A stretch of 64,000 nt of DNA from the NCBI GenBank assembly GCA_013297675.1, contig JAAFHZ010000007.1:1-64000 (forward strand). The letters are read 5' to 3'. The stretch's first letter is position 1. Each line of letters starts with the position of its first letter. This document shows positions 1 through 17,718 of the stretch, one piece after another. A model generated the notes under the pieces. That model saw nothing but the letters and a program-made list of their open reading frames with translations, ran no database searches and had not been told where the DNA came from. The translations under genes and the position numbers were made by a program. The stretch comes from Synechococcales cyanobacterium bin59.metabat.ball.084. GTDB taxonomy: Bacteria; Cyanobacteriota; Cyanobacteriia; Cyanobacteriales; Chamaesiphonaceae.

Positions 1-234
1 CTGGTAAATCTAAAAAAGCTTCTATGATTGCTAAGTTATTCAAAATTGTCACTACTCCATAAGTTGCTGTACCATAATACTAGCACCACTTGTGCCAATT
101 ATCATAGAATGAAATAGCCCTGGGTAGTACGCATTGATCTTAGAACTCATAAACTATTGACTCGTTTCTATGTGTCCTTCCTAATGAACACAGCAAGCCA
201 AAAGCATCACGAAAACTGTGTTTGCAAACTAAAA

Positions 235-849
235 ATGGATTTTAACTTCACCAAAGTCATTGTTTGTAGTGGTCATATGACCGATCGAGCAAATCGTGCC
301 AATCCGCGCTTTCCACCCGAAAAAGAAGCATTAGTAAGAGAGCAAATAATTAACCAGCTTCACTTATGGCAAGTTGATACAGGATCTCTAGCGATTTGCA
401 GTGGCGCAAGAGGAGCAGATATTTTATTTGTCGAATGTTGCCTGAGTTTGGGTGCCCAGATACATTTATTGATTCCTTTGTCCCAGACTGAATTCTTAGC
501 TCGATCGGTACGGCTAGATAACACCAACTGGCAAGATCGCTACTTGGCATTGTTACAACAACGTAATGTTTCTGTGTTTTTCCTTGAAGATTTCCTCGCC
601 AAAAACCCAGAAAAGTTCTTGATGATCGATAATATATTTGCTCAAAATAATCTCTGGATTATCCACACTGCCCAAACCATGCTGCGATTCTCCCCTGGAG
701 AATCGGCACAGCTATATGCCATTTTGGTCTGGGACGAACAAAGCCAGGGTGATGGCCCCGGCGGCACCGCAGATTTCGCCGATCGCATCCATCAATCCCA
801 AGGCACCATCGCCATCATTAACCCCACCAAACTTACCGCGAGGCCATAA
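235..849 (+). CDS. SLOG-like nucleotide-binding domain protein
   Basis: The 204-residue product has a Rossmann-like alpha/beta pattern. The motif SGHMTDRANRANPRFPPE lies near the N-terminus and CSGARGADILF follows about 35 residues later. Both resemble the SLOG-type domain found at the front of some cyanobacterial and proteobacterial signalling proteins such as class III cyclases and STAND ATPases. SLOG domains generally bind nucleotides or NAD-derived ligands, so a ligand-sensing role is inferred. The frame is open from a TTG at 157 and an ATG at 184, but the homology-like part begins just after the ATG at 235. The stop is three bases before the patatin gene, so the two are probably co-transcribed and translationally coupled. 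The exact ligand is unknown. Confidence 0.7.
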   Translation: MDFNFTKVIVCSGHMTDRANRANPRFPPEKEALVREQIINQLHLWQVDTGSLAICSGARGADILFVECCLSLGAQIHLLIPLSQTEFLARSVRLDNTNWQDRYLALLQQRNVSVFFLEDFLAKNPEKFLMIDNIFAQNNLWIIHTAQTMLRFSPGESAQLYAILVWDEQSQGDGPGGTADFADRIHQSQGTIAIINPTKLTARP

Positions 850-852
850 ATT

Positions 853-1992
853 ATGTCTGTCGAAAAAATCCTAGCCCGCGAAGGAGCACGCAAGTTATTA
901 GCGCTGGATGGCGGTGGCATTCGGGGCTTAATCTCGATCGAAGTCTTAGCAGAGCTAGAAAGTCAAATTAAAGCAGGCTTAGTCTCCAGCGGAAAACTAA
1001 CAGCCAATGATCCTTTTGTCCTTGCCGATTATTTTGACTACATTGCTGGTACCAGTACCGGTGCAATTATTGCCACAGCTCTCTCTACCGGCATGTCCGT
1101 AGCTAAAATTCGAGAGTTTTATGAAGCTAGTGGCGCAGCCATGTTTGAAAAAGCCGGATTATTAGAAAGATTAACTCACTCAAAATACGAAGATACTCAA
1201 TTAGCCCGTATCTTGCAGGAAACCTTTGGAGAGAATACCACCCTGGGCACCACGCGCTTAAAAACATTACTGATGTTGGTAATGCGCAATGTCAAAACAG
1301 ATTCACCCTGGACAATCTCTAATAATCCCCAGGCCAAATATAACGATCGAAGCCGTGCCGACTGTAATTTAGAGATACCGCTATGGAAATTAGTAAGGGC
1401 TAGCACCGCTGCACCGACTTTTTTCCCACCAGAAAATGTCACCGTAGGTGCAAGACAATTTATTTTTGTAGATGGGGGCATTACTCCTTATAACAACCCA
1501 GCCTTTCAGCTATTTTTGATGGCTACAGCCGAGCCTTATAACCTGCGCTGGCCAGCCGGTGAAGATCAGATGCTCATGGTTTCGGTGGGCACCGGTCTGA
1601 CTCCCAACATTCAACCAAATTTGGAAGCTAAAAAGATGAATTTGCTCTATCAAGCAACATCACTACCAACAGCATTGATGTTTGCGGCTCAGAACGAGCA
1701 AGATATGCTCTGTCGGATCTTTGGTAAATGCTTGGCTGGTGAACCGATCGATGGGGAAGTTGGTAATTTAATTGGAGCCACCGGAGCAGTGCATCCTAAA
1801 CTGTTTACCTATGTTCGCTATGACGTGGAGCTATCTCAAAAAAGTCTCCAACAGTTGGGAATGGGGCACCTAAATGCTGATAATATTCAACAAATGGATT
1901 CGGTAAAATACATGCCAGAACTGCAAGAAGTTGGCAGAGCTATAGCTAAAAAGGTTGATTTTTCCAACCCAAATCTTTCGCTATTCTTGTAA
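853..1992 (+). CDS. Patatin-like phospholipase
   Basis: The 379-residue protein carries the full patatin signature. The oxyanion loop DGGGIRG is at residues 19-25, the nucleophile elbow GTSTG has Ser68, and the catalytic Asp is in DGG near residue 207. Patatins are Ser-Asp dyad lipid acyl hydrolases that release fatty acids from membrane phospholipids. No signal peptide is visible, so it is expected to be cytosolic or peripheral to the membrane. It follows the SLOG-like gene by three bases. In bacterial conflict systems patatins (for example CapV of CBASS) act as membrane-damaging effectors switched on by a nucleotide sensor, and this pairing resembles that logic. No nucleotide cyclase gene is visible in the window. 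A housekeeping lipase role is equally possible. Confidence 0.9.
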   Translation: MSVEKILAREGARKLLALDGGGIRGLISIEVLAELESQIKAGLVSSGKLTANDPFVLADYFDYIAGTSTGAIIATALSTGMSVAKIREFYEASGAAMFEKAGLLERLTHSKYEDTQLARILQETFGENTTLGTTRLKTLLMLVMRNVKTDSPWTISNNPQAKYNDRSRADCNLEIPLWKLVRASTAAPTFFPPENVTVGARQFIFVDGGITPYNNPAFQLFLMATAEPYNLRWPAGEDQMLMVSVGTGLTPNIQPNLEAKKMNLLYQATSLPTALMFAAQNEQDMLCRIFGKCLAGEPIDGEVGNLIGATGAVHPKLFTYVRYDVELSQKSLQQLGMGHLNADNIQQMDSVKYMPELQEVGRAIAKKVDFSNPNLSLFL

Positions 1993-2171
1993 AAACCACT
2001 GTGCGTGAAGAAGGTAGGTTAGAGGAAATAATTCTTACTATTCTACAGGCAAAAAAAACTACTCATTTATTTTATGACCGAGGATATCTATTCTGGTACT
2101 CGACAGCAGTAGAATGACTGTGGTACAAATGGCAGCTAGCCATCAAGAAAAAAGGCTGGGAGGCTAAAGCG

Positions 2172-3089
2172 ATGAGTACACCAGAAATTCATTGGTATCC
2201 GGGGCATATTGCCAGAGCACAGCGGCAGTTACAAGAACAGCTCAAAAAAGTTGATGTGGTACTAGAAGTGCGAGATGCGCGGATTCCGCTGGCCACCCAT
2301 CACCCGTTTGTGGAAACTTGGATTGGCAACAAGATGCACCTGCTAATTTTTAATCGGGTGGATATGATCACGCCGGAGGTGCGGCTGGCTTGGACTCAAT
2401 GGTTTAAATCTCAGGGGCAAACAATATATTTTTCAGATGCGCGGGCAGGTAATGGGGTCGCAGCAATTATGAAGGCCGCACAGGTGGCTGGGATTTCTAT
2501 CAATCAGCGGCGCAAGGAGCGGGGCATGTTGCCACGGGCGGTGCGGGCGGTGGTGATTGGCTATCCAAATGTGGGTAAGTCGGCTCTGATTAACCGGTTA
2601 TTAAAAAAGCGGATTGTGGAGAGTGCTCGCAAGCCAGGAGTCACTAGACAACTGCGCTGGGTGCGGATTTCTGAGGAGTTGGAGTTGCTGGATGCGCCAG
2701 GGATTATTCCCGGACGCTTAAACAACCAAGCAGCCGCGATTAAGTTAGCGATTTGTGATGATATTGGTGAGGCCAGCTACGATCGGCAGCGAGTCACCGC
2801 CGCGATGGTAGAACTCATTAAAGATCTGGGGTATGACCAAAACTTGGTTTCTAAGTACGATATTGACCCGTTAACGATGACGGGCGAAGATTATATTCGG
2901 GCGATCGCTGACAAACAGTATCTAGGAGATATGGAACGCAGCGCCCATAATCTGTTAAACAATTTCCGCACGGGTGGTTTGGGGGCGATCAATTTGGATG
3001 TACCCCCAATTGTCGGCCAAGAGGCGATCGCCAGAGGCACAAATGAAGAGCCTAAGCTGGCAACGGTTGCTAATTTCCCTGATTTCTAG
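2172..3089 (+). CDS. ylqF: Ribosome biogenesis GTPase YlqF (RbgA)
   Basis: This is a circularly permuted GTPase of 305 residues. The G4 motif NRVD (residues 61-64) precedes the P-loop GYPNVGKSAL near residue 130 and the G3 motif DAPG near residue 175. That order is typical of the YlqF/RbgA family, as is the start HWYPGHIARA. The family acts in late maturation of the large ribosomal subunit. The length is normal. The gene stands alone, downstream of a 180-base gap after the patatin gene and convergent with the MFS gene. Two HIP1 octamers lie inside it, at 2901-2908 and 3024-3031. Confidence 0.93.
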   Translation: MSTPEIHWYPGHIARAQRQLQEQLKKVDVVLEVRDARIPLATHHPFVETWIGNKMHLLIFNRVDMITPEVRLAWTQWFKSQGQTIYFSDARAGNGVAAIMKAAQVAGISINQRRKERGMLPRAVRAVVIGYPNVGKSALINRLLKKRIVESARKPGVTRQLRWVRISEELELLDAPGIIPGRLNNQAAAIKLAICDDIGEASYDRQRVTAAMVELIKDLGYDQNLVSKYDIDPLTMTGEDYIRAIADKQYLGDMERSAHNLLNNFRTGGLGAINLDVPPIVGQEAIARGTNEEPKLATVANFPDF

Positions 3090-3104
3090 CTAAAGAATAT
3101 TTGG

Positions 3105-4349
3105 TTAATCAGATGATTTAGGAGCATATTGCTGCTGCGATCGAACTGCCAATATTAACACCAAAAAAGTCAAAATCCCCGCTGCATATAGCGGATAGGC
3201 ATAGCTACTATAATTGAGGGGATTAACTTTTTGTCCGGCTAACTCGGCTACTTCGGCTAATTTAGTAGTCCGCTGATCGATCATTAAACCAGCCACAACT
3301 GGCCCAATGCCGTTGGAAATACTCAAGTAAGAAGCGTTTAAACCTGCGGTCATTCCCTGTTCTCCGGGCTGGGTATTGAGTGAAACCAGGGTGCTAATTG
3401 TGGGCTGTACTAAGGAGTTGAAGATAGCAAACAGCATTCCGACCACTACAAAATAGCTTAAAACAGGAATAATGGGCATCATGCCAAAGCACAGGCTGCG
3501 GAAAAACAGCCCCAGAAATAAGATGCGCACGGTGCTAACTTTGAATTGTTCGGTCAAAATCTTTAAACCTTTGGTTTGCATCAATACCCCCAAAATACCA
3601 AAGGCAAAAAACAAGATGGTCAAAGATTTGCTGTCTTGTCCTAATACTTTTAAATAATAAGGTTGGAAGGCAAAGGTGAACATCGTAAAAGTGGTGCCGG
3701 TCAAAAAGTTTAAGATTACCAAAATGCCCACACCGGGAATCCGTAAACCCGAAATTAGTTTATCTAAGCCCAGGTCAAACAATGAGCCAATTTGTCTTTT
3801 GGCAGCGGGCAACGTTTCGGGCAAACGTAAGATTGTTAGGGTTAACGCGACTACTGCAATGCCTGCCGAAGCCAAAAAGGAAGTGCCGATCGATCGCTGC
3901 TGGGCGATTAAACTCAAAATTGGACCGACGACGAAACCTAGACCCAGCGCTGCCCCAAACACCCCAAACCCCTTGACTCGATCTTCGGGGGCGGTGATGT
4001 CGGTGATAATGGCCTGGGCAACGGAGACGTTGCCGCCAGTAATGCCATCGAGGAAGCGGGCAAAGAATAACATGCCTGCACTGGTGGCGGTGCCTGCTAG
4101 GGTGTTGGCGATGACGGTGCCCAGAAGACTGATGATTAATAGAGGTTTGCGGCCAAATCGATCGGAGAGTTTACCAATAATAGGGGTGGCAAAAAATTGG
4201 GCGATCGAGTAGATCGAGAACAGTAAGCTGGTTTCAAACTCATTGAGATGAAACTGTTTTCCGTAGATGTAAATGGTGGGAATCAGGATGGTGAAGCTTA
4301 AAGCATTAATAAAATTAATGAGGGCAACGATCCAAAAGGTAGAGCGCAT
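3105..4349 (-). CDS. MFS transporter, DHA1 (TetA-like) family
   Basis: The product is a 414-residue integral membrane protein with about twelve hydrophobic helices. The motif GKLSDRFGRKPLL between helices 2 and 3 is the classic MFS motif A of drug/H+ antiporters. It is therefore predicted to be a proton-driven exporter in the cytoplasmic membrane; the substrate cannot be told. The C-terminal half contains a short insert before the last helices (AEVAELAGQKVNP). It converges on ylqF with 15 bases between the stops. No regulator is adjacent. Confidence 0.9.
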   Translation of the reverse strand: MRSTFWIVALINFINALSFTILIPTIYIYGKQFHLNEFETSLLFSIYSIAQFFATPIIGKLSDRFGRKPLLIISLLGTVIANTLAGTATSAGMLFFARFLDGITGGNVSVAQAIITDITAPEDRVKGFGVFGAALGLGFVVGPILSLIAQQRSIGTSFLASAGIAVVALTLTILRLPETLPAAKRQIGSLFDLGLDKLISGLRIPGVGILVILNFLTGTTFTMFTFAFQPYYLKVLGQDSKSLTILFFAFGILGVLMQTKGLKILTEQFKVSTVRILFLGLFFRSLCFGMMPIIPVLSYFVVVGMLFAIFNSLVQPTISTLVSLNTQPGEQGMTAGLNASYLSISNGIGPVVAGLMIDQRTTKLAEVAELAGQKVNPLNYSSYAYPLYAAGILTFLVLILAVRSQQQYAPKSSD

Positions 4350-4375
4350 GGGGTGGCAAATCAGGAAAGTCTATG

Positions 4376-4573
4376 TCAGGATAGCGCACTGCTGGGGACG
4401 ACGATCATCTGAACCTGAATGAATCGCTGCAGGTATGGTATGAGATCTGCGCGGGTTTTGAGGTTGATGGTTGCTTGGGTGTCAAAGCCTATTTGCAGTG
4501 GATGGGTTACACTGGTTGAGGTAAAGTTAGCGAGGCTAATTTGTATGACAATTTCGCCGCTGGTTAAAGGCTC
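4376..4573 (-). pseudogene. Possible 3' remnant of an unrecognised gene
   Basis: On the minus strand, under the 5' end of the Uma2 gene, a stop-free run of 65 codons ends in TGA at 4378-4376. It reads like natural protein (for example GEIVIQISLANFTSTSV and FDTQATINLKTRADL), with alternating beta-type segments and no low-complexity sequence. An in-frame stop at 4576-4574 cuts it off upstream and no start codon fits. It may be the C-terminal end of a lipid-binding or DUF2993-like protein truncated when the Uma2 gene arrived. That identity is only a guess. Confidence 0.3.
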
Positions 4574-5525
4574 TCAGCCATTTGTTGGGACAGATATATC
4601 GGTCAAAAAGCGGAATCCCACGATCGATGATTTTCATTTTCCTGATGGATTGCCGACAGCGGATGAGTTACCAGATTCGGATGACACGCCTGTGGATAAG
4701 GAATGGAGCCGGAGGCTTCCTCCGGCTAGGGAATTCCGTAGTGAGTTACAAGAATTGATTCCGGGGTTGCTAAAAGCAATTTTGATGGAGATGTGGGGCA
4801 GTCGTAAGGATTGGCTGTTTAGTATCGATATGGCTTTTTATTATGACCCGATGCAGCGGACGAAGGCGATCGCTCCTGATGGAATGTTGAGTTTGGAGTT
4901 AAGAGAAACTGATAGTACTAAGCTACGGTCTAGTTATGTTTTATGGCAAGAGAAGGTATTGCCATTGTTTGTGATGGAGATTGTTTCCAAAACTGCTGGG
5001 AGAGAAAAAACTGAGAAGTTTGAGATTTATCAATCGGTGGGGATTTTGTACTATTTAATTTATTCTCCTCTGCTGAAAAGAAAGGCTAGGTTTCAACTGT
5101 ACAAGTTGGTTGAGGGTAAATATGTGCTACAAAGTTCTGGTCAGCAACCTTATTGGATGCCAGAAGTTGGGCTGGCGATCGGTGCTGAGCAGCAAGTTTA
5201 TGGCTACGCTGAGCGAGAGTTGCTGTATTGGTATGACGAAAATAATGTGAGGTATCTTACGCCGACAGAGAAATCAGTGATGTCATTGGCAAAAGCTGAT
5301 GCTGAGGCTAGAAAGGCAGCAAAGGAAACTAAAAGAGCTGATGCTGAGGCTAAAAAGGCAGCAGAGGAAACTAAAAGAGCTGATGCTGAGGCTAGAAAGG
5401 CAGCGGAGGAAACTAAAAGAGCTGATGCTGAGTTGGCTGAAAAGGTTGCTGTTCAAAAGGAAATAGAGCTACTCAGAGAACGTCTTAAGGCATTGGGAAT
5501 AGATCCTGATTCGATTAAATTGTAG
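4545..5525 (+). CDS. Uma2 family (DUF820) PD-(D/E)XK nuclease-fold protein
   Basis: The 326-residue protein has the cyanobacterial Uma2 core. APDGML carries the conserved Asp, and a beta-strand leads into FVMEIVSKTAGREKTEKFEIYQ, where E and K form the expected ExK part of a PD-(D/E)XK site. The family is expanded in cyanobacteria; endonuclease activity is presumed from the fold and not generally demonstrated. The C-terminus (about residues 245-310) is a charged helix built of a 14-residue repeat, probably a coiled coil. The frame is open back to an ATG at 4419, but residues before the ATG at 4545 do not look like the family and overlie the remnant on the other strand, so the later start is preferred. 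Confidence 0.8.
   Translation: MTISPLVKGSQPFVGTDISVKKRNPTIDDFHFPDGLPTADELPDSDDTPVDKEWSRRLPPAREFRSELQELIPGLLKAILMEMWGSRKDWLFSIDMAFYYDPMQRTKAIAPDGMLSLELRETDSTKLRSSYVLWQEKVLPLFVMEIVSKTAGREKTEKFEIYQSVGILYYLIYSPLLKRKARFQLYKLVEGKYVLQSSGQQPYWMPEVGLAIGAEQQVYGYAERELLYWYDENNVRYLTPTEKSVMSLAKADAEARKAAKETKRADAEAKKAAEETKRADAEARKAAEETKRADAELAEKVAVQKEIELLRERLKALGIDPDSIKL
5295..5432 (+). repeat. 42-bp tandem repeat inside the Uma2 gene
   Basis: Three full copies (5295-5336, 5337-5378, 5379-5420) and a partial fourth begin gctgatgctgag and differ at only a few positions. They encode ADAEARKAAEETKR-type units, giving a highly charged helix. The near-identity at DNA level suggests recent slippage, so copy number may vary between strains. 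Confidence 0.9.
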
Positions 5526-5570
5526 ATGATCGATACGCGATCGGGAAACTAGTTCAGGTTAAAATGTCAG

Positions 5571-5620
5571 TTTAGGGTTCATGGTGAAATTAACCTACCA
5601 ATTTCACCATGAACCCTAAA
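5571..5620. terminator. Long perfect hairpin upstream of the zorA-like gene
   Basis: Two 21-base arms (5571-5591 and 5600-5620) are exact reverse complements around an 8-base loop. The left arm begins tttagggttcatgg. There is no T-run after either arm, so simple rho-independent termination is not certain. It lies 45 bases after the Uma2 stop and about 70 bases before the zorA-like frame. Confidence 0.75.
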
Positions 5621-5692
5621 CGTACCTGCCGTAGATTGATAAGTATCTAGGGAATTATAAGTTCATGTGGGGTAAATCGAGATATTTGGGGA

Positions 5693-8287
5693 ATGCTAAG
5701 ATGCGTACCAAGTAAAGCTGCTGTGATCCTTGGCACCCCAACTACCCCGTGCTGCCTGATGAACTCTATTCCATCATCGATCGTCATCCTCTCTGTTATT
5801 TTCGTGGGGATTCCAGCTCTCATCGCTGTATATTTGCGTTTGCTTTGCTATCGATATCTTCATGAACTCAACCAAGACCTGTCTCGGTTGTTAAACTTAT
5901 TGAGTACAAACTCTGATCGACTAAGTGGAATTATTAATAAGTTACATCAGCGGTATGCAGCGGTCAGTCTCAAAACTGATCGAGTAAATACAATTGCCTT
6001 GGTCGAAGTAGTTTACGCAGAACAGCGAATCCGTTGGCCTCTTGGCAAGATTTCCCTAGAGAGAATTGATGCTTACACTCGAGTGCTGCCCAATTTGCTA
6101 CTGTCTTTCGGATTAATTGGCACATTCGTTGGTATTACAACTAATTTAGTGTCTTTGAGTGGCATTATTAATAGTACTAATGCTAGCGATATTAATGAAT
6201 TAGTGACGGCACTAAAATCACCTTTAGAGGGTATGGGCATTGCCTTTATCAGCAGTTTAGCGGCATTAGGGGCTAGTGCTTTTTTAGTAATTGCCAATTT
6301 ATTTTGGAATATTAGCACTCAAAAAAACGATTTGCTTAGTGGCTTTGAAGATTATTTAGATAATATTTATCAGCCAAGTCTTAACGGAGATAGCAAGCTA
6401 GATAAAACCATTGATAAGATGGCAAATACCTTTGATAAATTTTTAATTGGGTTCGGTGACTCCATTAAATCGGCGGTAGAAATTGCTCTTCAGGATAAGA
6501 TCAAAGAGATTTCTAATGCTTACGATAAGGTTTCAAAAGCAGCGTTGAAAACCTATAGTCATTTAGACGATGCTACCGGTAAAATTTCTCAAGGGGCGAA
6601 CAGCATACAGTCTGCTGCCCTCAACTTAAATCAGGCAGTCAAAGAAATCCATGATAGTGAATTTGCTCAATCTCTTTCTAAAACGACAAAGGCAATGGGT
6701 CTTCATGTGCGTGAATTTGAAATGTCCAGTCAGTGTTTGTCTAAGACTGTGGTATCTACTGAAAAATTATTTGCTGAATCTGGGGTGTCTTTTTCTAACG
6801 CGATCGATAAATTAGTGAATACCCAAGATGGCTTTATGAGTTCGATCGAGAGTCTCAACCATGCGGCCAACACAGTCAAAGGGGGTACGTTAGGTTTCCA
6901 AATGGCAGCTACTGAGCTTCAAAAAGCTGCCCAATCTATTAAAGAAAGTAAATTTGTGGAATCACTGACCCATGCCACTAGTGGATTGAAAAATACAGTT
7001 GGTGAATTCCAGTCTTCCAGCAAAAACTTAGCCGATACTATTTCTGGGATTCATGATTTTATGGATGAATCTAACAGCAATTTTGCCAGTCAACTCATAG
7101 AACTCGGTGCCATTCAAAGTAGTTTTACTAGCTCTAGTAAAAACTTGGACAAAACAATATCATCACTACGTCAAAGCTTAGAAAACTCATTTCTCAATAA
7201 AATCGAAGAAATTTCCACTAGCTATATGGGGATAGCTACCTTAGCTAGTCAAACCTATGTGAAGCTAGATAAAATCTCCGATACAATGGCCGATAGTGCT
7301 ACTGGTTTACAGAGTTCTTCATTGATTTTCCAAGAATCAGCGCAAATCTTGGCCAAAGCTGACTTCGATCAATCTTTCAGATCCTTTACTACTGCTGCTT
7401 CTACCATGCAGGAATGTATTAATGGCTCCAATAACCTCTTTACACAGTCGATCGCCGATCTAGCTCAGGTACAATCTAATTTCGCCAAATCTAGTAGTGG
7501 ATTAAATGCCTCTGTTTCCACACTGCATCAAACCCTGGGTGACTTGATGACCGATGGCATCCAAAAAATCTCTACTAGTTACGATGGCATCAGTAACCTA
7601 GCATCGCAAACTTATGAGCGGCTAGATGCAGTGTTTGGCAACATGGATAGTAGCGTCAAAAATATCTATGACTCTTCGCTGGTCTTCCAGCAAACTGTGC
7701 AGGCATTGGATACCAGCTTCCAAGTCATTCAAAAAGATTTCCAGGTTTCTACTAACAATTTACAAGAGACCTTTGGCAGTATTGATCGGGCGGTGAAAGT
7801 CTTGGAAACAAATGGTCATCAATCCTCAGTGGTACTCGAAAAGATCGCCGATATCTCTGGTTCACAACAATTGATCAGCAGTCAACAGCAATTCAGTCAG
7901 CAGTCTTTTAGTGATGTACTGCCTAAGTTTGATAGTGTTGCTAGCTCTTTTCAAGAAATATCATTGCAAATAGCACGTAAGAATTTGGATATGGGTGATA
8001 TGACCTTACAGATGTCGGAAGCTGCTGGCAAGATCAATAGTTATATTGACAGTAAAGATCAGGCCAAAAATGAAATTAGCGATCGACTTAACCAAGCTAT
8101 CAACCAACTCAACAAGCTCGAGGTGGTTAGCACCAGTGGCTTTGGTGGACTAAAAAATGAAATTAGTGGTCAACTCAGCCAAACCATCAATCAACTTAGC
8201 AAGCTTGAAGTAGCTAGCACTAGTGGTTTTAGTGGATTGAAAGAAGCGATCGAATCATTTCCAAAGCGCAAATTTCCCTGGTCTTAA
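5693..8287 (+). CDS. zorA: ZorA-like MotA/ExbB-family stator with long tail
   Basis: The N-terminal 210 residues form a MotA/TolQ/ExbB-type proton-channel core. There is one helix at about 28-50, then a hydrophobic pair at about 130-155 (LLLSFGLIGTFVGITTNL) and 180-205 (GMGIAFISSLAALGASAF). The remaining 650 residues are Ser/Lys/Leu-rich amphipathic helix with several divergent repeats of about 100-140 residues and a final 28-residue tandem repeat. This layout matches ZorA of Zorya anti-phage defence, whose long cytoplasmic tail transmits the signal from the motor. The ZorB-like partner follows after five bases. The frame opens at ATG 5693; ATG 5759, directly before the first helix, is a good alternative. 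No strong ribosome binding site is seen at either. Confidence 0.8.
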   Translation: MLRCVPSKAAVILGTPTTPCCLMNSIPSSIVILSVIFVGIPALIAVYLRLLCYRYLHELNQDLSRLLNLLSTNSDRLSGIINKLHQRYAAVSLKTDRVNTIALVEVVYAEQRIRWPLGKISLERIDAYTRVLPNLLLSFGLIGTFVGITTNLVSLSGIINSTNASDINELVTALKSPLEGMGIAFISSLAALGASAFLVIANLFWNISTQKNDLLSGFEDYLDNIYQPSLNGDSKLDKTIDKMANTFDKFLIGFGDSIKSAVEIALQDKIKEISNAYDKVSKAALKTYSHLDDATGKISQGANSIQSAALNLNQAVKEIHDSEFAQSLSKTTKAMGLHVREFEMSSQCLSKTVVSTEKLFAESGVSFSNAIDKLVNTQDGFMSSIESLNHAANTVKGGTLGFQMAATELQKAAQSIKESKFVESLTHATSGLKNTVGEFQSSSKNLADTISGIHDFMDESNSNFASQLIELGAIQSSFTSSSKNLDKTISSLRQSLENSFLNKIEEISTSYMGIATLASQTYVKLDKISDTMADSATGLQSSSLIFQESAQILAKADFDQSFRSFTTAASTMQECINGSNNLFTQSIADLAQVQSNFAKSSSGLNASVSTLHQTLGDLMTDGIQKISTSYDGISNLASQTYERLDAVFGNMDSSVKNIYDSSLVFQQTVQALDTSFQVIQKDFQVSTNNLQETFGSIDRAVKVLETNGHQSSVVLEKIADISGSQQLISSQQQFSQQSFSDVLPKFDSVASSFQEISLQIARKNLDMGDMTLQMSEAAGKINSYIDSKDQAKNEISDRLNQAINQLNKLEVVSTSGFGGLKNEISGQLSQTINQLSKLEVASTSGFSGLKEAIESFPKRKFPWS

Positions 8288-8292
8288 ATAAT

Positions 8293-8931
8293 ATGACATC
8301 CAAACGCCGCAGTGCTGAAAGCGAAGAACTAAATATTTGGCCATCATTTACCGATCTGATGTCCAATGCTTTCATGATTAGTATGCTGTTAATCTTACTC
8401 TTGGTGATTAAAATACCAACGAAGAAGCAAGAACAGCCCAAAAAAGCGCCGCCAATCATTGAAATTCAAGACAGCGGAGCCTACCGATTTTTATCGGGCA
8501 GCGCTGAATCCCCTGCTGAAATGACTAACTATCTTGAAACCAAACTAGTTTCTCAAATTGAGGAACAGGTTCGAGAAAATAAAATCGATGTGATTGAAAT
8601 TATTGGTCATACCGATGCACAGCCCAATGCGATCAATGCTGGAAACCTAGATAGCAAAATTCAGGATGTGGCAGCAAACAAGTTTCCGATATCAATGTTG
8701 AAAGCTAGCTCTAACGCAGACTTAGGTCTAATGAGAGCTTTGACAGTGGTAAAGATTTTGAAGAATATCCAGTCTAGTTCAAGTCATCTGAAGGGTGTCA
8801 AATTCAGAGCTTACTCTGCTGGTCAGCTAATTCTCCCCCGAGATATTGAATCTGCCGATCCACAGGATGGTCGTCGCCGTCGGATCGAAATTCGGTTTAC
8901 TCGTGATGGCAAGGTGACAAAAGTAGGATAG
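8293..8931 (+). CDS. zorB: ZorB-like MotB/OmpA-family stator subunit
   Basis: The 212-residue protein has a short cytoplasmic start, one membrane helix (about residues 22-42) and a periplasmic OmpA/MotB domain. Asp21 in WPSFTDLMS sits at the entrance of the helix, where MotB-type stators carry their proton-binding Asp. EIIGHTDAQPN and the C-terminal GRRRRIEIRF match peptidoglycan-binding OmpA motifs. With the gene upstream it should form an ion-driven inner-membrane motor anchored to the wall. ZorB of Zorya is the closest architecture. No zorC, zorD or zorE follows: the next gene is on the other strand and encodes a small membrane protein. Confidence 0.82.
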   Translation: MTSKRRSAESEELNIWPSFTDLMSNAFMISMLLILLLVIKIPTKKQEQPKKAPPIIEIQDSGAYRFLSGSAESPAEMTNYLETKLVSQIEEQVRENKIDVIEIIGHTDAQPNAINAGNLDSKIQDVAANKFPISMLKASSNADLGLMRALTVVKILKNIQSSSSHLKGVKFRAYSAGQLILPRDIESADPQDGRRRRIEIRFTRDGKVTKVG

Positions 8932-9031
8932 CTTCGTAGGTCTTGATGATCGATTAATTTCTTGATTTGCAATCTATAGCAATGGTATTCAATGAACAAT
9001 TGATGATGGCAAAACGACTCCTTACAAAATA

Positions 9032-9088
9032 TTAGGATCTATGATGGTTCAAGATTTGCTATGCAGCTTGAACCATCATAGATCCTAA
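9032..9088. terminator. Long perfect hairpin downstream of the zorB-like gene
   Basis: Arms 9032-9053 and 9067-9088 are exact 22-base reverse complements with a 13-base loop. The hairpin lies between the convergent ends of the zorB-like gene and the small membrane protein gene, so it can serve both strands. Its outer half (ttaggatctatgatgg) resembles the hairpin upstream of the zorA-like gene (tttagggttcatgg). Confidence 0.75.
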
Positions 9089-9099
9089 ATTCAACCAGG

Positions 9100-9510
9100 C
9101 TACTCTCCCCAAGAATCCAGATCGAGTGCCGCAGAGCCACCCTGATCGAGTTCTTTAAACACACCCTTGAGCTGAATCCACAAAAACAGAGTGGTCAGTA
9201 GGGTCATTGGAATCGCCAATCCGGCGGCCAAGATATCTGGAAAGCCAAAAATGGACAGTCCTGAGGTCAAGAAAATTCCCACCCCGGCAGCAATACCCAC
9301 AAAAGGGACTTGGAGAGGGAGTTTACCCGAGTTGGCCAAGCGAATATTGGCTCGATCGGCAGACCAAGCTTTGACGTTGGTTTTAAGAGTGGCATCGAAG
9401 GCTGCACCGCAGCTTATGCCCATGAACAAACCGACTACCAGTAAGAAGTATGGCGGATCGGTAGGATAGTAATACAAACAGAACTCCTGCAAATGGCTGA
9501 TGGAAATCAC
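9100..9510 (-). CDS. Small integral membrane protein, unknown function
   Basis: The product has two or three hydrophobic segments: one around YFLLVVGLFMGISCGAAF, then VGIAAGVGIFLTSGL and AGLAIPMTLLTTLFLW. A soluble loop separates the first two, and the C-terminus is acidic. I do not recognise the family. The longest frame begins at a GTG at 9510. A TTG at 9477-9475 preceded by GGAG at six bases is a better start and would remove the overlap with the mini-gene on the other strand. The 3' end faces the zorB-like gene across the hairpin. Nothing in the sequence links it functionally to that pair. Confidence 0.7.
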   Translation of the reverse strand: MISISHLQEFCLYYYPTDPPYFLLVVGLFMGISCGAAFDATLKTNVKAWSADRANIRLANSGKLPLQVPFVGIAAGVGIFLTSGLSIFGFPDILAAGLAIPMTLLTTLFLWIQLKGVFKELDQGGSAALDLDSWGE

Positions 9511-9648
9511 ACATTTAGTGCGATATATTTATCTCATGCGCCTGAGATACATCTTAAATTTAAAGCAATTGTCCGGGCAAATCAAATTGAATCTTCTTTA
9601 GGTATTAGTGAGTTAAAGCTCTCCGTACCGGGGGAAATCGGGGTTTAG
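9493..9648 (+). CDS. 51-residue protein, first copy of a tandem pair
   Basis: An ATG opens a 51-codon frame (start MADGNHTFSAIYLS, end VPGEIGV) that is repeated 259 bases downstream. The two products are about 65% identical (33 of 51 positions), with no gap in the alignment until the last codons, and ANQIESSLGISE is unchanged in both. No membrane segment or signal peptide is seen. A hairpin with a T-rich tail follows seven bases after the stop. There is no clear ribosome binding site. I do not recognise the family. The frame overlaps the 5' end of the minus-strand gene only if that gene uses its GTG start. Confidence 0.5.
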   Translation: MADGNHTFSAIYLSHAPEIHLKFKAIVRANQIESSLGISELKLSVPGEIGV

Positions 9649-9654
9649 TTAACA

Positions 9655-9687
9655 ATGGCAGGCACAGAAGGTGTCTGCCATTCTTTT
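9655..9687 (+). terminator. Terminator of the first mini-gene
   Basis: An 11-base stem (9655-9665 with 9671-9681, one G-U pair) and a 5-base loop are followed by tcttttgg. Confidence 0.65.
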
Positions 9688-9751
9688 GGCTGTTCAAAAT
9701 CTTGGTTCACTGGTATTTTTTTATGTTAGGTTCCAAGCTGAGATCCAGTAA

Positions 9752-9910
9752 ATGGCTGATGGAGATCACAAATTTAGTGAGATATATTTGTCTTATCAGC
9801 CTGAGATACAACTTAATTTTCAAGAAGTTATCCCGGCTAATCAAATTGAATCTTCTTTAGGTATTAGCGAGTTTAGCCTCCCTATACCGGGGGAATTGGG
9901 GTTTAGTTAA
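9752..9910 (+). CDS. 52-residue protein, second copy of a tandem pair
   Basis: The frame reads MADGDHKFSEIYLS at the start and ends IPGELGFS. It aligns over its whole length with the upstream copy, including the following terminator region, so a block of roughly 190 bases was duplicated. Differences fall in solvent-type positions (N/D, T/K, A/E, H/Q), while hydrophobic and Gly/Pro positions are mostly kept, as expected for coding sequence. A strong terminator follows directly. Function unknown. Confidence 0.5.
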   Translation: MADGDHKFSEIYLSYQPEIQLNFQEVIPANQIESSLGISEFSLPIPGELGFS

Positions 9911-9913
9911 CAG

Positions 9914-9945
9914 CAGCAGACACAATGTGCCTGCTGTTTTTTTTG
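9914..9945 (+). terminator. Terminator of the second mini-gene
   Basis: A stem of CAGCAGAC-type sequence (9914-9924) pairs with 9926-9936 (one G-U, tight loop) and is followed by eight T. It overlaps an ATG at 9925 that would otherwise extend nadC. Confidence 0.75.
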
Positions 9946-9993
9946 GCGCTTTTTTTGTGGTTAACTAGAGGCTGTTGGTTCTTTGGTTTCTTT

Positions 9994-10842
9994 ATGGCTC
10001 CGTTTGTTTTACCTCCTTGGATCGTGCTAGATCCCTTGCTAGATAGCTGGTTACGAGAAGACATTGGGCGTGGCGATCGAGCAACTGCTGGTTTAACAGG
10101 TATTAGAACCGCCCAGTGGCGGGTGAAATCAGCAGGAAGAATTGCCGGGTTAGATGTGGCAGCGCGGATTTTTCAGCGGTTGAACCCGACTGTAGACTTT
10201 GTGGCCTTGGTACCAGAGGGAGCTGATTGTGAGGCTCAGACGATCGTGGCCGAAATTACTGGATCGATCGGGGATTTGTTGACGGGTGAGCGATCGGCGT
10301 TGAATTTGGTGATGCGGTTGAGTGGCATTGCCACAGCAACTAGTTTATATGCGGCGCAGATTGCTGATTTGCCAACCCAGTTGGTAGATACCCGCAAAAC
10401 TACGCCCGGTTTAAGAATTTTAGAGAAGTATGCAACTACTGTGGGCGGGGGAATCAGTCACCGCCAGGGTTTGGATGATGGAGCGATGATCAAAGATAAT
10501 CATATTGCGGCAGCGGGGGGCATTCGGGAGGCCGTAACATTGGTGCGGGAATCTTTGCCATATCCGTTGACGATCGAGGTAGAAGTAGAGTCGATCGAGC
10601 AGCTCGATGTGGCGATGGAGTGCGGGGTAGAGATTATTATGTTGGACAATATGCCAGTGCCGATGATGGAGGTGGCGGTAGATGCTTGCCGAAAACACGC
10701 CCCACATATTAAGTTGGAAGCTTCGGGGAATATTACGCTGGAAACTATTCGAGCAGTGGCCGAAACTGGGGTAGATTATATTTCTACAAGTGCGCCAATT
10801 ACTCGATCGCCCTGGTTAGATCTAAGTATGCGGATGATCTAG
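9994..10842 (+). CDS. nadC: Nicotinate-nucleotide pyrophosphorylase (carboxylating)
   Basis: NadC converts quinolinate and PRPP to nicotinate mononucleotide in de novo NAD synthesis. The 282-residue product shows DTRKTTPGLR, GGGISHRQGLDDGAMIKDNH and the barrel motifs EVEVE and IMLDNM that bind quinolinate and PRPP. The frame is open from ATG 9925, but that codon lies in the upstream terminator hairpin and would add a hydrophobic leader foreign to the family. ATG 9994 gives the normal length. The gene is monocistronic. Confidence 0.93.
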   Translation: MAPFVLPPWIVLDPLLDSWLREDIGRGDRATAGLTGIRTAQWRVKSAGRIAGLDVAARIFQRLNPTVDFVALVPEGADCEAQTIVAEITGSIGDLLTGERSALNLVMRLSGIATATSLYAAQIADLPTQLVDTRKTTPGLRILEKYATTVGGGISHRQGLDDGAMIKDNHIAAAGGIREAVTLVRESLPYPLTIEVEVESIEQLDVAMECGVEIIMLDNMPVPMMEVAVDACRKHAPHIKLEASGNITLETIRAVAETGVDYISTSAPITRSPWLDLSMRMI

Positions 10843-10907
10843 AGCATCTCAATTACGAGAATCGATTAGAATTATTCTAGACCCATTCCCATCAGAGAAT
10901 CAAGAAT

Positions 10908-11168
10908 ATGAGTAGACATACCCCTTACAACATCCAGTTGCAGGTTTCGCGGATGTTTCAAGATGGACAAGCCATGTTTGCCAGCATTAAAGTCCAAGAT
11001 TGGCTGAAAGAGCGCAGTGAAGATCCGGCAGACTACAGTATTACTTTCAACAAAAAACCGGCACCAGTCGGTTCCCGCGCAGTCCAAACAGTCGAAATTG
11101 TGCTCAAGCGCAAAGATGGTGAGCCAGTAGCCGATTGGTTACTGTCACAGTTAGCTGGTGAAGGCTAG
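10908..11168 (+). CDS. Small conserved protein of unknown function
   Basis: The 86-residue product starts MSRHTPYNIQLQVSRMFQDG and has a mixed alpha/beta pattern with a basic surface; there is no signal or membrane segment. Codon use and composition match the neighbours. The stop shares four bases (ctag) with the stop of the convergent glycosyltransferase gene. I do not recognise a named family. Confidence 0.75.
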   Translation: MSRHTPYNIQLQVSRMFQDGQAMFASIKVQDWLKERSEDPADYSITFNKKPAPVGSRAVQTVEIVLKRKDGEPVADWLLSQLAGEG

Positions 11169-13300
11169 GCTTGGTGAATCTGCCACATTTGCTGATAGGC
11201 TTTCTCCATCTCTAGAGTGAAATCATGGGCGTTCCATAGCGGAGATGTCCAGCGTGCGGCTAAGAGCTTGCTAGCTACTTGTTGACGAAGGCTCTGATCT
11301 TTACCCAGCTTGATGCCCCACTCAATGTATTCGACGATCGATTTCCCAATCCCCTCGGTAATACCGGCACAGGTCATAAAACCATAACTATTTCGGGCGG
11401 CGAACTGCTCACCAATGGTCGTAACCATCGGAATTCCCAGCCACAAGGTTTCTAATGTAGTAGTTGCGCCATTGTAAGGAAAGGTATCTAAAACCACGTC
11501 GGCGATCTGTAAATTAGCGCGATGGGTTATTTCGTTGGGATCTTCGCCTAAGAAGCGAACTTTTGACCATTCTAAGCCCGCTGCTGCTGCTAAAGATTGA
11601 TATAAGCGTAAAGCAGTATCTTCGTCCATGCGGGTTTTGACTAATAAATAGCTATTAGCTACTTGTCGTACTATTTGCATTTGTGCCAAAATATTGGCGG
11701 CATTGAGCTTGTAGCCTTTTTGGGCGCTGAAGTAAATCACTGCATCTGCGGGGATATTTAGGCTCGATCGAGATATCGTAGCTGTCCCGACTTCAAAACC
11801 ATCCACGGCTAAATAAGTCTGGGGCAACCGCCAAATCTTTTCGCTATAGTATGCTTGGGCATCGGCTGGTAAAACTTGGTGATCGGCAATGTAGTAGTCA
11901 ATTTCTGGACAGCCAGAGGCATCCCAGCCTAGCCAAGTTATCTGAATTGGAGCTGCTCTGCGCGACATAACTTCATAGGTGACACTAGAGGTAATGCTAT
12001 CTACATCTACTAAAATATCTATTTGATCTTGACGAATCAAATCAGCAATTTCTACAGGATTATTATTGAGATAGTAGTTGGCATCAGACTTGCTAGCAAA
12101 CCAATGAGCATTAAAGGAATTATGTTCAGGAGTATTGATGTTATAAGTAAAAATCTCAAATTTCTCATGATTATGATACTGCCATAGCCAGCGACTCAAC
12201 CAACCCACAGAATGAGAGCGCAGCGTTCCACCGATATAGCCAATTCTTAAAACCCCTGGTTTTTTGGGGTGTTTTGGTTTTGCCGAATAAGGTTTTTTGG
12301 CATCGGCTAATTCTAATTTCAAACAGGCTTGATATAACTGACCAGCGCGATTTTGATAGTGATGATTTTCGGCGGGCAAATCTTGGAGATAAGGAAAAAA
12401 GCCGGTGGTGCTGATGATCGATTTACAGTTTTCTAAATCTATATCTGGGGGTGGATTCTGCAAAATCTGATCTACCAAGCTGCGATAGGCAGGCATGATT
12501 GTTGCCACTTGTGCAAAATCACTGGCTTCTAGTAAAGCCCTTGTCCATAAATAATAGCCGCGCACTTTTTCTAGATCGGTAACACAGCCTTCGTAATATT
12601 TTTGAGCCATCTGGGCACTATCGGCATAGCGATTTACTTGCGGATAAGTCACAGAGAGAAAATGCCTTAAGCCTAAATTTTGGGGGAATAGCTCTAGGCA
12701 ATATTCAGCCACCGAAATACCTCGATCTGTCAGGTAGGGAAAACCTATACCAAAAGCCTGTACCAGCAATATACTCAGCAGCTCTTCTGCTCGATCGCTA
12801 TATTGCAAGCAATTTAAAACCTGAGAGATATTTTCTGTGCAGATTACTCCCAACATTTTACCAAAAGCCGCTGCTAACAGGGGCTGATTAATCTCCTCCG
12901 CTTCAGCAATAGCTTCGGCTAGCTGCCATTCCAAAATATGTGCTGGGTGTAGTTGAGTACAGCAGTCTGTCAGCAAGACTAACTGCAAAACATTTTCTAA
13001 GCAAGTGTCATGAAGCTGCTGAAAGTATTCTCTTAAGATCAATGCTCCTCGATAGTTACGCAGCTCGGTCTGTTGTTGGGCCGCAATCAGCAAAGTGTTG
13101 CCCAGGTCAGTGGCTAATTGAGCAGCGGCTGCTTCGTCAGAGGCGTTGGCCAAGGGTATCAACCAAGTGGCATCAGCTTCTGCCAAATTATTATTGAGAG
13201 CGTAAGAAATTCCTAACCACCAATAGTTGCTAGCCAGATCGCTCTTGGCGATCGCGGCTTTGTAACGAGCAATCTGTTTGGTGATAGATGGTGCAATCAT
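11165..13300 (-). CDS. GT41-family (O-GlcNAc transferase/SPINDLY-like) glycosyltransferase
   Basis: The 711-residue protein has an all-helical N-terminal half (TPR-like, residues 1-310) and a GT-B catalytic half. RIGYIGGTLRSHSVGWLSRW begins the catalytic region. QITWLGWDASGCPEIDYYIAD, KVRFLGEDPNEITHR and DVVLDTFPYNGATTTLETLW are typical of bacterial O-linked GlcNAc transferase-like proteins. It probably glycosylates a protein or a surface polymer. The frame continues upstream to 13693 but overlaps the divergent flippase gene and loses homology, so the ATG at 13300 is chosen. The flippase next door suggests a shared role in surface glycans. Confidence 0.85.
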   Translation of the reverse strand: MIAPSITKQIARYKAAIAKSDLASNYWWLGISYALNNNLAEADATWLIPLANASDEAAAAQLATDLGNTLLIAAQQQTELRNYRGALILREYFQQLHDTCLENVLQLVLLTDCCTQLHPAHILEWQLAEAIAEAEEINQPLLAAAFGKMLGVICTENISQVLNCLQYSDRAEELLSILLVQAFGIGFPYLTDRGISVAEYCLELFPQNLGLRHFLSVTYPQVNRYADSAQMAQKYYEGCVTDLEKVRGYYLWTRALLEASDFAQVATIMPAYRSLVDQILQNPPPDIDLENCKSIISTTGFFPYLQDLPAENHHYQNRAGQLYQACLKLELADAKKPYSAKPKHPKKPGVLRIGYIGGTLRSHSVGWLSRWLWQYHNHEKFEIFTYNINTPEHNSFNAHWFASKSDANYYLNNNPVEIADLIRQDQIDILVDVDSITSSVTYEVMSRRAAPIQITWLGWDASGCPEIDYYIADHQVLPADAQAYYSEKIWRLPQTYLAVDGFEVGTATISRSSLNIPADAVIYFSAQKGYKLNAANILAQMQIVRQVANSYLLVKTRMDEDTALRLYQSLAAAAGLEWSKVRFLGEDPNEITHRANLQIADVVLDTFPYNGATTTLETLWLGIPMVTTIGEQFAARNSYGFMTCAGITEGIGKSIVEYIEWGIKLGKDQSLRQQVASKLLAARWTSPLWNAHDFTLEMEKAYQQMWQIHQA

Positions 13301-13427
13301 GATTGGAGCTAGAACGGCTACGATGCTATGGTACCCAGCCGCTCGATCGTTCAAGCCATAAAAGGTTAAAAATTTCGATGAAGTGATTGGTAAACAGTGA
13401 TTGGTAAACTCTGCATAATTCAGCCGG

Positions 13428-14768
13428 ATGGCAGTGGTCGATCGACTGTTAAAACAGCATACAATGGAGCAAAGTCTTCCGTTGCTACCTAACGCTGCCT
13501 TCATGCAAAAAATCTTTCGCAATAATATTTTCTCCAATAGCATCGCGGTACTGCTATTGCGGGGTACTACGATCTTTACCCGGATTGCGGCGTTGTTTGT
13601 AATTGCCAAATTCACCAATAGCCAAGAGTTTGGCATGGTTTCGGTGGCGGTTGCTCTGGCCGAAATTGGCAAAGTAGCAGCCGATTTTGGCACTGATACT
13701 CTGTCTTTAAAAGAATATGCGATCGCTTCTGAGCCTCAGCGTTTGAGCAGGTTTGCTGGGACTGTTGCCCATACTAAATTTATTTGCTGTTTGCTGGTAT
13801 ATGCTAGCCTATCTACTTACTTTGTGGCGGTAGAGACTTTACCAAATGCTTTGATTGGGATAGTAGCAGGGTTATTGCTGGTTACGACTTCATTTAGTAA
13901 CTTTTCGATTAATTACTTTCAGGCCAGGTTAAGAATTCCAGAAATTCTGTGGCCGATCATTGCTAATAACTTAGTGGCGTTGGCGCTGGTGGCTTTGTTA
14001 CTGACAGTATACCCCAGTGCTTTATTGGGGGTAGCCATTTTGCCCGGAGCCGAAGCGGTGAATGCCCTAATTTTGTACTTATATTTCCGTAAGAATGTGC
14101 GATTAGAGTTAAAGCAAATCGATCGAGCGGACGTGTGGGCTTTGCTGCGCCAGGGGCTGCCGATCGCGATTTCGATCATTATTGTGGCTATTTACACCCG
14201 CCTGGATGTAATTGTCTTAGAGAAGTTTTTTGATAAGTCGATCGTCGGGGAATATGGAGTGGCTTTTCGCTGTACAGAGCCATTTCAACTGGTGACTTCG
14301 GCTTTTGCAATTACTGCCTACAGTCATTTGTCAGCGATTTTAGACCAGCATAAGTTCCAAGAAGCCAATAAATTTATTGTGAAATATGGCTCAATGATTT
14401 TGACTTATGGCTTAGTGATTTGTGGATTTTTGCTGCTGGTGGCTCCCCCTTTGATTCAAGCTTTTTTACCCCAATATCAAAATTCGATTCCAATTCTGCA
14501 AGTGTTGGCCACCGCAATTATTTTTCGGACACCTAGCGCCAGTCTTACCTGCATGATTCAAGCCTTTGGTCACTACCGGTGGATTACCTATGTATCGGTG
14601 TGGAATTTGGTATTTATTGCTGCACTGTTGGCAATTTTGGTACCCAGAATGTCGGCAATTGGCGCAGCTTATTCTTTGCTGATCGGGGAAGTAGTGAATG
14701 TGCTGATTCAGGGTTCTATGCTGTTATATATAAGTCGCCGTCGGCTTTTAATAGCTAGCAAATCCTAA
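13428..14768 (+). CDS. Oligosaccharide flippase (Wzx/PST, MATE-like superfamily)
   Basis: The 446-residue protein has about twelve to fourteen hydrophobic helices and no soluble domain. The N-terminal pattern (NNIFSNSIAVLLLRGTTIF, FTNSQEFGMVSVAVALAEIG) is that of polysaccharide export flippases, which move lipid-linked sugars across the inner membrane. ATG 13428 is the longest start; ATG 13464 or 13503 would still include all helices. It is divergent from the glycosyltransferase and ends at a strong terminator. Confidence 0.87.
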   Translation: MAVVDRLLKQHTMEQSLPLLPNAAFMQKIFRNNIFSNSIAVLLLRGTTIFTRIAALFVIAKFTNSQEFGMVSVAVALAEIGKVAADFGTDTLSLKEYAIASEPQRLSRFAGTVAHTKFICCLLVYASLSTYFVAVETLPNALIGIVAGLLLVTTSFSNFSINYFQARLRIPEILWPIIANNLVALALVALLLTVYPSALLGVAILPGAEAVNALILYLYFRKNVRLELKQIDRADVWALLRQGLPIAISIIIVAIYTRLDVIVLEKFFDKSIVGEYGVAFRCTEPFQLVTSAFAITAYSHLSAILDQHKFQEANKFIVKYGSMILTYGLVICGFLLLVAPPLIQAFLPQYQNSIPILQVLATAIIFRTPSASLTCMIQAFGHYRWITYVSVWNLVFIAALLAILVPRMSAIGAAYSLLIGEVVNVLIQGSMLLYISRRRLLIASKS

Positions 14769-14797
14769 AAAAAGCCCCCATTTCTGGGGGCTTTTTA
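14768..14797. terminator. Bidirectional rho-independent terminator
   Basis: AGCCCCCA pairs with TGGGGGCT around tttc, flanked by A-run and T-run, so it works in both directions between the convergent flippase and RTX genes. Confidence 0.92.
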
Positions 14798-14811
14798 AAG
14801 CTTAATCAAAA

Positions 14812-16332: not shown

Positions 16333-16664
16333 CGATTTTGTTCAATCCTATGTGTTTAAACAGCTTAATTAAGTAGATTGCACCATTTTTTTAACATTAA
16401 AGTTAATAGCCAGAGATATGATATCTCACACCTTAATTTCGTACCAGTTAAAATGAAAGAAAAATCCTGAAAAGTAGAGGCAAAAGCCTGAAAGGCTCTC
16501 TAGATAAAAGTTTTAGCAAAAGTAACTGATTATTGCTAACTTCAGCCAATCGACTGATATATAGCGCTAAAAAGCGGAGAAAGCATACGCCATGTTAAGT
16601 AAATTTAGAATAGAAACTCTGATGGTTGAGCCATTATTGAATAATCAATGACCTAGCGCACAGC
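16333..16664. other. Intergenic region without a recognisable gene
   Basis: This AT-rich stretch of 332 bases lies between the RTX gene (5' side) and the rnz stop. It must hold the RTX promoter. The only frame with a plausible start is 19 codons long (16592-16651) and I see no support for it. No hairpin with a T-run was seen. Confidence 0.6.
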
Positions 16665-17597: not shown

Positions 17598-17718
17598 GGC
17601 AATTTTGTGTGACGTTCTTTGGCTAGATCTTAGCATCTACAACAGAAATCGCGGACTTACTGGGTTAGATCTAAGTTTCAGTAGGAAAAACTGATGGCAA
17701 AATCTTATCAACTCTAAC

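What the first reader, a model, noticed from the sequence alone, without database searches (positions are those of the whole stretch)
5693..8931. ZorAB-like motor without ZorC, ZorD or ZorE
Seen: a MotA-type core with a 650-residue helical tail and a MotB/OmpA partner five bases downstream. Known: Zorya types use ZorAB plus ZorC/ZorD or an HNH protein ZorE. Here no such effector is near; the only nuclease-like neighbour is the Uma2 protein upstream. Inferred: either an undescribed variant with Uma2 as effector, a stand-alone motor, or a motor used for another envelope task.
Basis: partly seen in the sequence, partly recalled or inferred. Interest (0 to 1): 0.68.

Follow-up and report, generated by a model that had tools for sequence, protein, structure and literature searches.

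The report
Detached ZorAB-like motor in a cyanobacterium
Two neighbouring genes probably build a small ion-driven rotary motor in a cyanobacterium's inner membrane; its relatives usually sit beside a tubulin-like protein rather than beside anti-virus genes, so the motor may serve the cell envelope or a tubulin-like filament.

Summary
In detail: 5693-8287 (A, 864 aa) and 8293-8931 (B, 212 aa), 5 nt apart, encode a MotA/TolQ/ExbB-type membrane core with a ~630-residue helical tail and a MotB/OmpA partner. By sequence profile the nearest solved relatives are ZorA and ZorB of type I Zorya; no ZorC/D/E lies among the neighbours scanned. Uma2 as effector is not supported: the genome has 88 Uma2 copies, and related motors have no consistent Uma2 neighbour. 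Of 99 distinct related B genes, 72 end a VWA-like/FHA - FtsZl1 (tubulin-like, PF13809) - A - B operon. This is the predicted 'membrane remodelling' system of Makarova & Koonin 2010, which names its OmpA proteins but no motor. In 195 order genomes all 62 with the VWA-like gene also have the motor; 38 of 100 motor genomes lack that gene. The window pair is a diverged, detached copy. The host also carries the operon, but its FtsZl1 gene is interrupted by a multicopy transposable element. Best reading: an ion-driven 5:2 motor of a Zorya-related cyanobacterial family tied mainly to an envelope/cytoskeleton machine, here without its usual partners. Anti-phage function is neither shown nor excluded.

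The parts
5693..8287 (+). Gene A: ZorA-like (MotA/TolQ/ExbB-type) motor subunit with long tail; likely start 5759
5759..6394 (+). A core (model residues 1-212): membrane helices and beta hairpin, pLDDT about 90
6395..8284 (+). A tail (model residues 213-842): helical, internal repeats at offsets 119, 97 and 234, hydrophobic period 3.60
8293..8931 (+). Gene B: ZorB/MotB-like subunit with one membrane helix and OmpA-type domain
8353..8355 (+). Codon of channel Asp21 of B
   Evidence: conserved in 100 of 101 B proteins
5570..5621 (.). Perfect 22-bp hairpin between Uma2 and A (context, not shown to be part of the system)
4419..5525 (+). Uma2-family gene; judged a chance neighbour, not part of the system

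Best explanation
The pair encodes an ion-driven 5:2 (A5B2) rotary motor of a cyanobacterial, Zorya-related family. Shown: a ZorA-like core, a long repeated helical tail, a B subunit with channel aspartate and wall-binding residues, and the family's usual place as the last two genes of a VWA-like(-helix-FHA) - FtsZl1 tubulin-like GTPase - A - B operon. Inferred: B anchors to the cell wall; ion flow past Asp21 turns the A pentamer; the five tails bundle into a cytoplasmic rod that acts on a partner, in operon copies most likely FtsZl1. The window copy is a diverged, detached second copy. It works either alone, as motors in genomes without the VWA-like and FtsZl1 genes must, or in trans with the host's other operon, whose FtsZl1 gene is interrupted. 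The most likely job lies in the envelope or a tubulin-like filament system, not in a nuclease defence with Uma2.
For: Operon context: 72 of 99 distinct B loci in the operon, 17 detached, 9 at contig edges, 1 with VWA only. FtsZl1 is PF13809, E 4.9e-107. VWA-like gene in 62 of 195 genomes, all 62 with the motor, 60 with strong FtsZl1; motor without it in 38 of 100. In 7 distinct loci (10 listed) the motor stands between the flanking genes seen in operon loci, without VWA-like and FtsZl1. ZorA and ZorB nearest solved relatives. Channel and wall-binding residues conserved. Host operon on C151 and C193, FtsZl1 interrupted by a multicopy element. Not a recent duplicate: the host's operon copy groups with family operons, support 0.999 and 1.0, and of 11 family genomes only the host has two copies. 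No Uma2 link.
Against: No experiment shows rotation, partner or task. ZorA/ZorB being the nearest solved relatives leaves a defence use possible. OmpA-domain relatives on rhizobial plasmids lie by a thermonuclease gene, which would fit defence. The window copy has no FtsZl1 or VWA-like neighbour. 28 of 100 motor genomes lack strong FtsZl1 and 18 FtsZl1 genomes lack the motor, so the two are not obligate partners. The window copy's place in the trees is poorly supported (0.078 and 0.182 at its nearest B-tree nodes). Co-occurrence tests ignore kinship.
Confidence: 0.68

Rival explanations
1. The pair is the motor of an undescribed Zorya-like anti-phage system of cyanobacteria: B senses cell-wall damage on infection, ion flow turns A, and the tail recruits an effector encoded elsewhere or not recognised.
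For: ZorA and ZorB are the nearest solved relatives; PADLOC hits; patchy presence in 100 of 195 order genomes and a diverged extra copy in one genome of 11 in the family fit accessory genes; rhizobial plasmid relatives lie by a nuclease gene; related vWA/tubulin/GTPase operons have been read as conflict systems (passages of PMC7159879).
Against: No Zorya effector among 13 proteins scanned; family mostly in a VWA-like/FtsZl1 operon in fixed synteny with household genes in several lineages; FtsZl1 and the VWA-like protein have no convincing PADLOC hit; no relative in viral contigs.
Confidence: 0.2
2. A motor with the upstream Uma2 protein as nuclease effector.
For: Same strand, next gene upstream.
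Against: 88 Uma2 genes in the genome; 15 of 122 motor loci with Uma2 within two genes, about 8% expected, mostly downstream; hairpin between the genes.
Confidence: 0.03
3. A relic: a horizontally acquired or ancient spare copy without function.
For: Detached, single copy in the family, long branch.
Against: Both reading frames are long and intact; the channel and wall-binding residues are kept; tail repeats keep helical phase.
Confidence: 0.09

Closest known systems
Zorya type I ZorA/ZorB (8vvn, 8qyd, 8qyy)
   Same: Nearest solved relatives of both subunits by profile; same core fold, Z 11.3; beta hairpin in the core, as a beta sheet is described for Zorya-type proteins (passage of PMC12505986); long helical tail; OmpA-type B.
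   Different: No ZorC/ZorD nearby; far below NCBIfam cut-offs (30.0 of 500; 15.4 of 400); tail of about 630 residues with internal repeats (type I rod modelled as residues 237-696, passage of PMC11890865); family mostly in a VWA-like/FtsZl1 operon.
FtsZl1/vWA 'membrane remodelling' system (Makarova & Koonin 2010, PMC2875224)
   Same: FtsZl1-type protein (PF13809), vWA-type partner and OmpA-family partner.
   Different: The paper treats the OmpA proteins as outer-membrane-type proteins and does not contain MotA, TolQ, ExbB or motor. Here the OmpA protein is a ZorB-like subunit with a ZorA-like partner. The window copy itself is detached.
TolQR/ExbBD and MotAB/PomAB motors
   Same: Same superfamily fold: TolQ and ExbB at Z about 11, tied with ZorA; PomA 8.2.
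   Different: No MotA, TolQ or ExbB at E up to 1 in the core profile search; they lack the long tail (recalled).
vWA force transducers with TolQ-like pentamers (PMC12204202)
   Same: A vWA fold and a 5:2-type motor in one system (passages).
   Different: There the vWA protein itself carries the motor-inserted helix; here it is a separate gene with an FHA domain, and the motor has its own B.

Membership tests
Zorya | ZorA-like subunit with long cytoplasmic tail | tested here: met
   PADLOC ZorA1 E 6.9e-7; core profile best match ZorA 2.2e-10; but far below the NCBIfam cut-off
Zorya | ZorB-like MotB/OmpA subunit directly downstream | tested here: met
   PADLOC ZorB1 E 2.2e-11; profile match 8vvn_B E 3.4e-6
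Zorya | Type-defining partner genes (ZorC/ZorD, ZorE, ZorF/ZorG) beside ZorAB | tested here: not met
   No such hit among 13 proteins scanned at 157-19709; the contig ends upstream of position 1
Zorya | ZorC elsewhere in the genome | tested here: inconclusive
   PF15611 gave no match, but the 14 control genomes were silent too; that ZorC carries this domain is recalled
Zorya | Anti-phage activity | not testable with these tools
   Needs plaque assays
FtsZl1/vWA system | Adjacent FtsZl1 (PF13809) and vWA-type genes | tested here: not met
   Absent at the window locus; present at 72 of 99 distinct related loci and at the host's other copy, with FtsZl1 interrupted
FtsZl1/vWA system | vWA domain in the partner gene of the operon | tested here: inconclusive
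   Invariant D38, T40, S42 resemble a MIDAS motif; no Pfam hit; only weak fold matches to vWA proteins (6fpy E 6e-3); 17 FHA matches at E<=0.001 for the C-terminal part
5:2 ion-driven motors | Channel aspartate in the membrane helix of B | tested here: met
   Asp21, 100 of 101 B proteins
5:2 ion-driven motors | Pentamer:dimer assembly and ion flow | not testable with these tools
   Needs structure and flux assays
MotAB/TolQR/ExbBD | Pfam MotA_ExbB above its curated cut-off | tested here: not met
   11.5 bits, cut-off 22.9; the fold itself is shared and tied with ZorA

The most novel reading that the evidence does not exclude
A cytoskeleton-coupled rotary motor: an ion-driven A5B2 motor, anchored in the cell wall, whose repeated helical shaft drives or organises filaments of a tubulin-like GTPase (FtsZl1), gated by a vWA-like/FHA membrane protein that reads phosphorylation; the same motor was freed from these partners more than once, as in the window, and runs with other partners or none.
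Probability: 0.3. Interest if true: 0.85.

Novelty: new variant of a known kind. Interest (0 to 1): 0.62.

Why it matters
It links two lines of work that are separate in the papers searched: ZorAB-type rotary motors, known from phage defence, and the FtsZl1/vWA system, predicted in 2010 to remodel membranes and without a mechanism in what was read here. If the OmpA protein of that system is the wall-anchored subunit of an ion-driven motor, the system gains an energy source and a testable mechanism. It also warns that ZorA/ZorB-like hits in cyanobacterial genomes need not mean Zorya defence.

Tried and rejected
Uma2 as effector: rejected on copy number and context. Recent duplication of the host's own operon motor: rejected. 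Viral origin: 30 pattern-matched stretches of viral contigs, none a relative. Plasmids: 19 records match, none over 80% of B, essentially the OmpA part. The whole-model fold search did not separate ZorA from TolQ/ExbB (Z within 1). The whole-protein profile of A against solved structures is swamped by coiled coils, so the core-only profile is used. BLAST of the whole tail against itself showed only the trivial match; 110-residue pieces showed repeats, and a shuffle test supports them. The PF15611 search was silent in controls too. The PF01618 search of the genome rang at three other genes and not at the window gene. A promoter/terminator scan found no more than shuffles. A profile of the VWA-like protein had no meaningful sequence match among solved structures. 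Searches for a described VWA/tubulin/motor link; none of the listings showed one, in a library of open-licence papers only. Counts: some records came through two tools and are counted twice; the deduplicated operon count is. In the contingency tables FtsZl1 counts as present at E<1e-15; 18 of the 108 genomes with any PF13809 match have only weaker ones and count as without it.

Full report
Observation. Upstream lie a Uma2 gene (4419-5525), a transporter-like gene on the other strand (MFS by reading, not searched), a GTPase gene with a Pfam MMR_HSR1 match, a patatin gene and an unassigned ORF; downstream a small ORF on the other strand and a quinolinate phosphoribosyltransferase gene. The window begins at the first base of contig C188 of a 4.64-Mb, 220-contig genome.

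What the proteins are. Pfam barely sees A and B. PADLOC gives ZorA1 (6.9e-7) and ZorB1 (2.2e-11); NCBIfam scores are far below its cut-offs. A profile from 33 A cores matches solved ZorA chains first (2.2e-10) and no MotA, TolQ or ExbB up to E 1. A profile from 31 B proteins matches ZorB first (3.4e-6), then PomB more weakly. The AlphaFold2 model of A has a confident core with a beta hairpin and an all-helical tail of low confidence; by fold the core ties ZorA, TolQ and ExbB at Z about 11. In B the segment FTDLMSNAFM with Asp21, and His106, Thr107, Asp108 and Arg148 of the OmpA domain, are invariant or nearly so (101 sequences; 31 sequences). In Zorya the channel Asp and wall-binding residues of ZorB are needed for activity (passages of PMC11890865); the equivalence of positions is inferred from motif and alignment.

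The tail. The 632 residues from position 233 of the 864-aa ORF show internal repeats at offsets 119, 97 and 234 (best 80-residue scores 170, 104, 99; highest in 100 shuffles 45) and one strong hydrophobic period of 3.60 residues (power 7.2; 95% of shuffles below 2.1). The offsets are close to whole numbers of 3.6-residue turns, so the repeats keep the helical phase. A length varies in the family from 400 to 1076 aa.

Relatives and context. B relatives occur in 100 of 195 genomes of the order, in 49 of 292 genomes of a phylum draw, all but two of these 49 in the same order, and in 5 of 11 of the family. Eighty named loci, nearly all cyanobacterial by title, were fetched. Neighbour clustering showed a conserved operon VWA-like - FtsZl1 - A - B. 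Of 103 B loci, 76 are in the operon, 17 detached, 9 at contig edges and 1 with VWA only; without duplicate sequences 72, 17, 9 and 1 of 99. FtsZl1 is PF13809, E 4.9e-107. The first gene has no Pfam hit. Its alignment shows an invariant D-x-T-x-S motif; its model has an N-terminal domain, one long helix and a C-terminal FHA fold (17 Foldseek hits at E<=0.001, all FHA; vWA proteins only at E about 6e-3). I call it VWA-like.

Dependency. In the same 195 genomes the VWA-like gene is in 62, all 62 with the motor and 60 with strong FtsZl1. The motor is in 100, of which 38 lack the VWA-like gene and 28 lack strong FtsZl1; 18 genomes have FtsZl1 without the motor. The p values (1e-24 for VWA-like and motor, 7e-25 for VWA-like and FtsZl1, 6e-14 for motor and FtsZl1) ignore kinship. 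So the VWA-like gene appears to need the motor, but not the reverse. Synteny agrees: in Moorena loci and in L146 and L155 the motor lies among flanking genes that also flank the operon in other genomes (clusters c7, c10, c11; c60, homologous to c4), without VWA-like and FtsZl1 and with a hisS-like gene there (label by reading). Ten such loci are listed, three of them second fetches of the same contigs.

The host. Its own operon lies on C151 (VWA-like gene and FtsZl1 N-part) and C193 (FtsZl1 C-part, A, B). Both contigs end inside FtsZl1 in DNA that recurs in the genome (18 and 17 places, self included), largely at contig ends. A full copy on C197 encodes a 326-aa transposase-like protein (IS630-type by reading, recalled). 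So FtsZl1 is interrupted in this assembly. The host's operon motor groups with family operons (0.999 in the B tree, 1.0 in the A tree), while the window copy falls elsewhere with poor support. Of 11 family genomes only the host has two copies. Whether the window copy came by transfer or is an old paralogue is open.

Uma2. The genome has 88 matches. A Uma2 lies within two genes at 15 of 122 motor loci, about 8% expected, and the Moorena cases are one syntenic group counted several times. A perfect 22-bp hairpin (-38.7 kcal/mol, z -8.2) lies between Uma2 and A.

Literature. Makarova & Koonin 2010 (PMC2875224; parts 1 and 2 of 5 read, and passages) define FtsZl1 with vWA and OmpA partners and propose membrane remodelling; MotA, TolQ, ExbB and motor do not occur in its text. 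PMC7159879 (passages) reads related GTPase/tubulin/vWA operons as conflict systems. PMC12204202 (passages) describes vWA proteins driven by TolQ-like pentamers. [quoted passage not shown] PMC11890865 (passages) gives the Zorya types and ZorAB requirements. A further Zorya paper was not held. No description of a motor in the FtsZl1 system was seen in the listings.

Conclusion. A Zorya-related 5:2-type motor family in cyanobacteria is mostly tied to a VWA-like/FtsZl1 operon but can stand alone; the window holds a stand-alone, diverged copy. Family and context are well supported; task, partner and rotation are inferred. Anti-phage use remains a live rival.

Noticed in passing
L138 (G000 C151 end) and L139 (G000 C193 end); full element on L144: Both contig ends inside the host's FtsZl1 gene match a multicopy element (18 and 17 places); a full copy encodes a 326-aa transposase-like protein. 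FtsZl1 is interrupted in this assembly.
   Followed up: yes
L135:5075-10134, L136:4727-10619, L137:4713-10272: Three rhizobial-order plasmids carry a four-gene operon: membrane protein, membrane-anchored vWA-like protein (by reading), tailed MotA-like protein (by reading), OmpA protein related to B (about 35-43% over the OmpA part), with a thermonuclease (SNase) gene next to or near it in all three opened (of 19 records). A possible plasmid-borne defence or transfer module.
   Followed up: partly
window 157-1992: A small ORF that reads like a SLOG-type nucleotide-binding protein (label recalled, no family hit) directly before a patatin phospholipase resembling CBASS effectors (NCBIfam 128.6 bits, cut-off 200): a possible defence pair.
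   Followed up: no
window 17719-18759: Kinase-like gene with strong PADLOC PD-T4-6 matches (E 1.7e-118); may be an ordinary Ser/Thr kinase.
   Followed up: no
window 5570-5621: Perfect 22-bp inverted repeat with an 8-nt loop between Uma2 and A, without a T run; its arm occurs nowhere else in the window.
   Followed up: partly
L082, L087, L088, L103: Four detached motor loci have a Ser/Thr-kinase-like gene (cluster c24, label by reading) directly upstream on the other strand; with the FHA fold of the VWA-like protein this hints at phospho-signalling.
   Followed up: no
G000 whole genome: 88 Uma2-family matches in 4.64 Mb, about one per 53 kb.
   Followed up: yes
L116 (G102 C1): VWA-like gene followed directly by B, with only a 75-position FtsZl1 remnant and no A called: a deletion inside the operon.
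   Followed up: no
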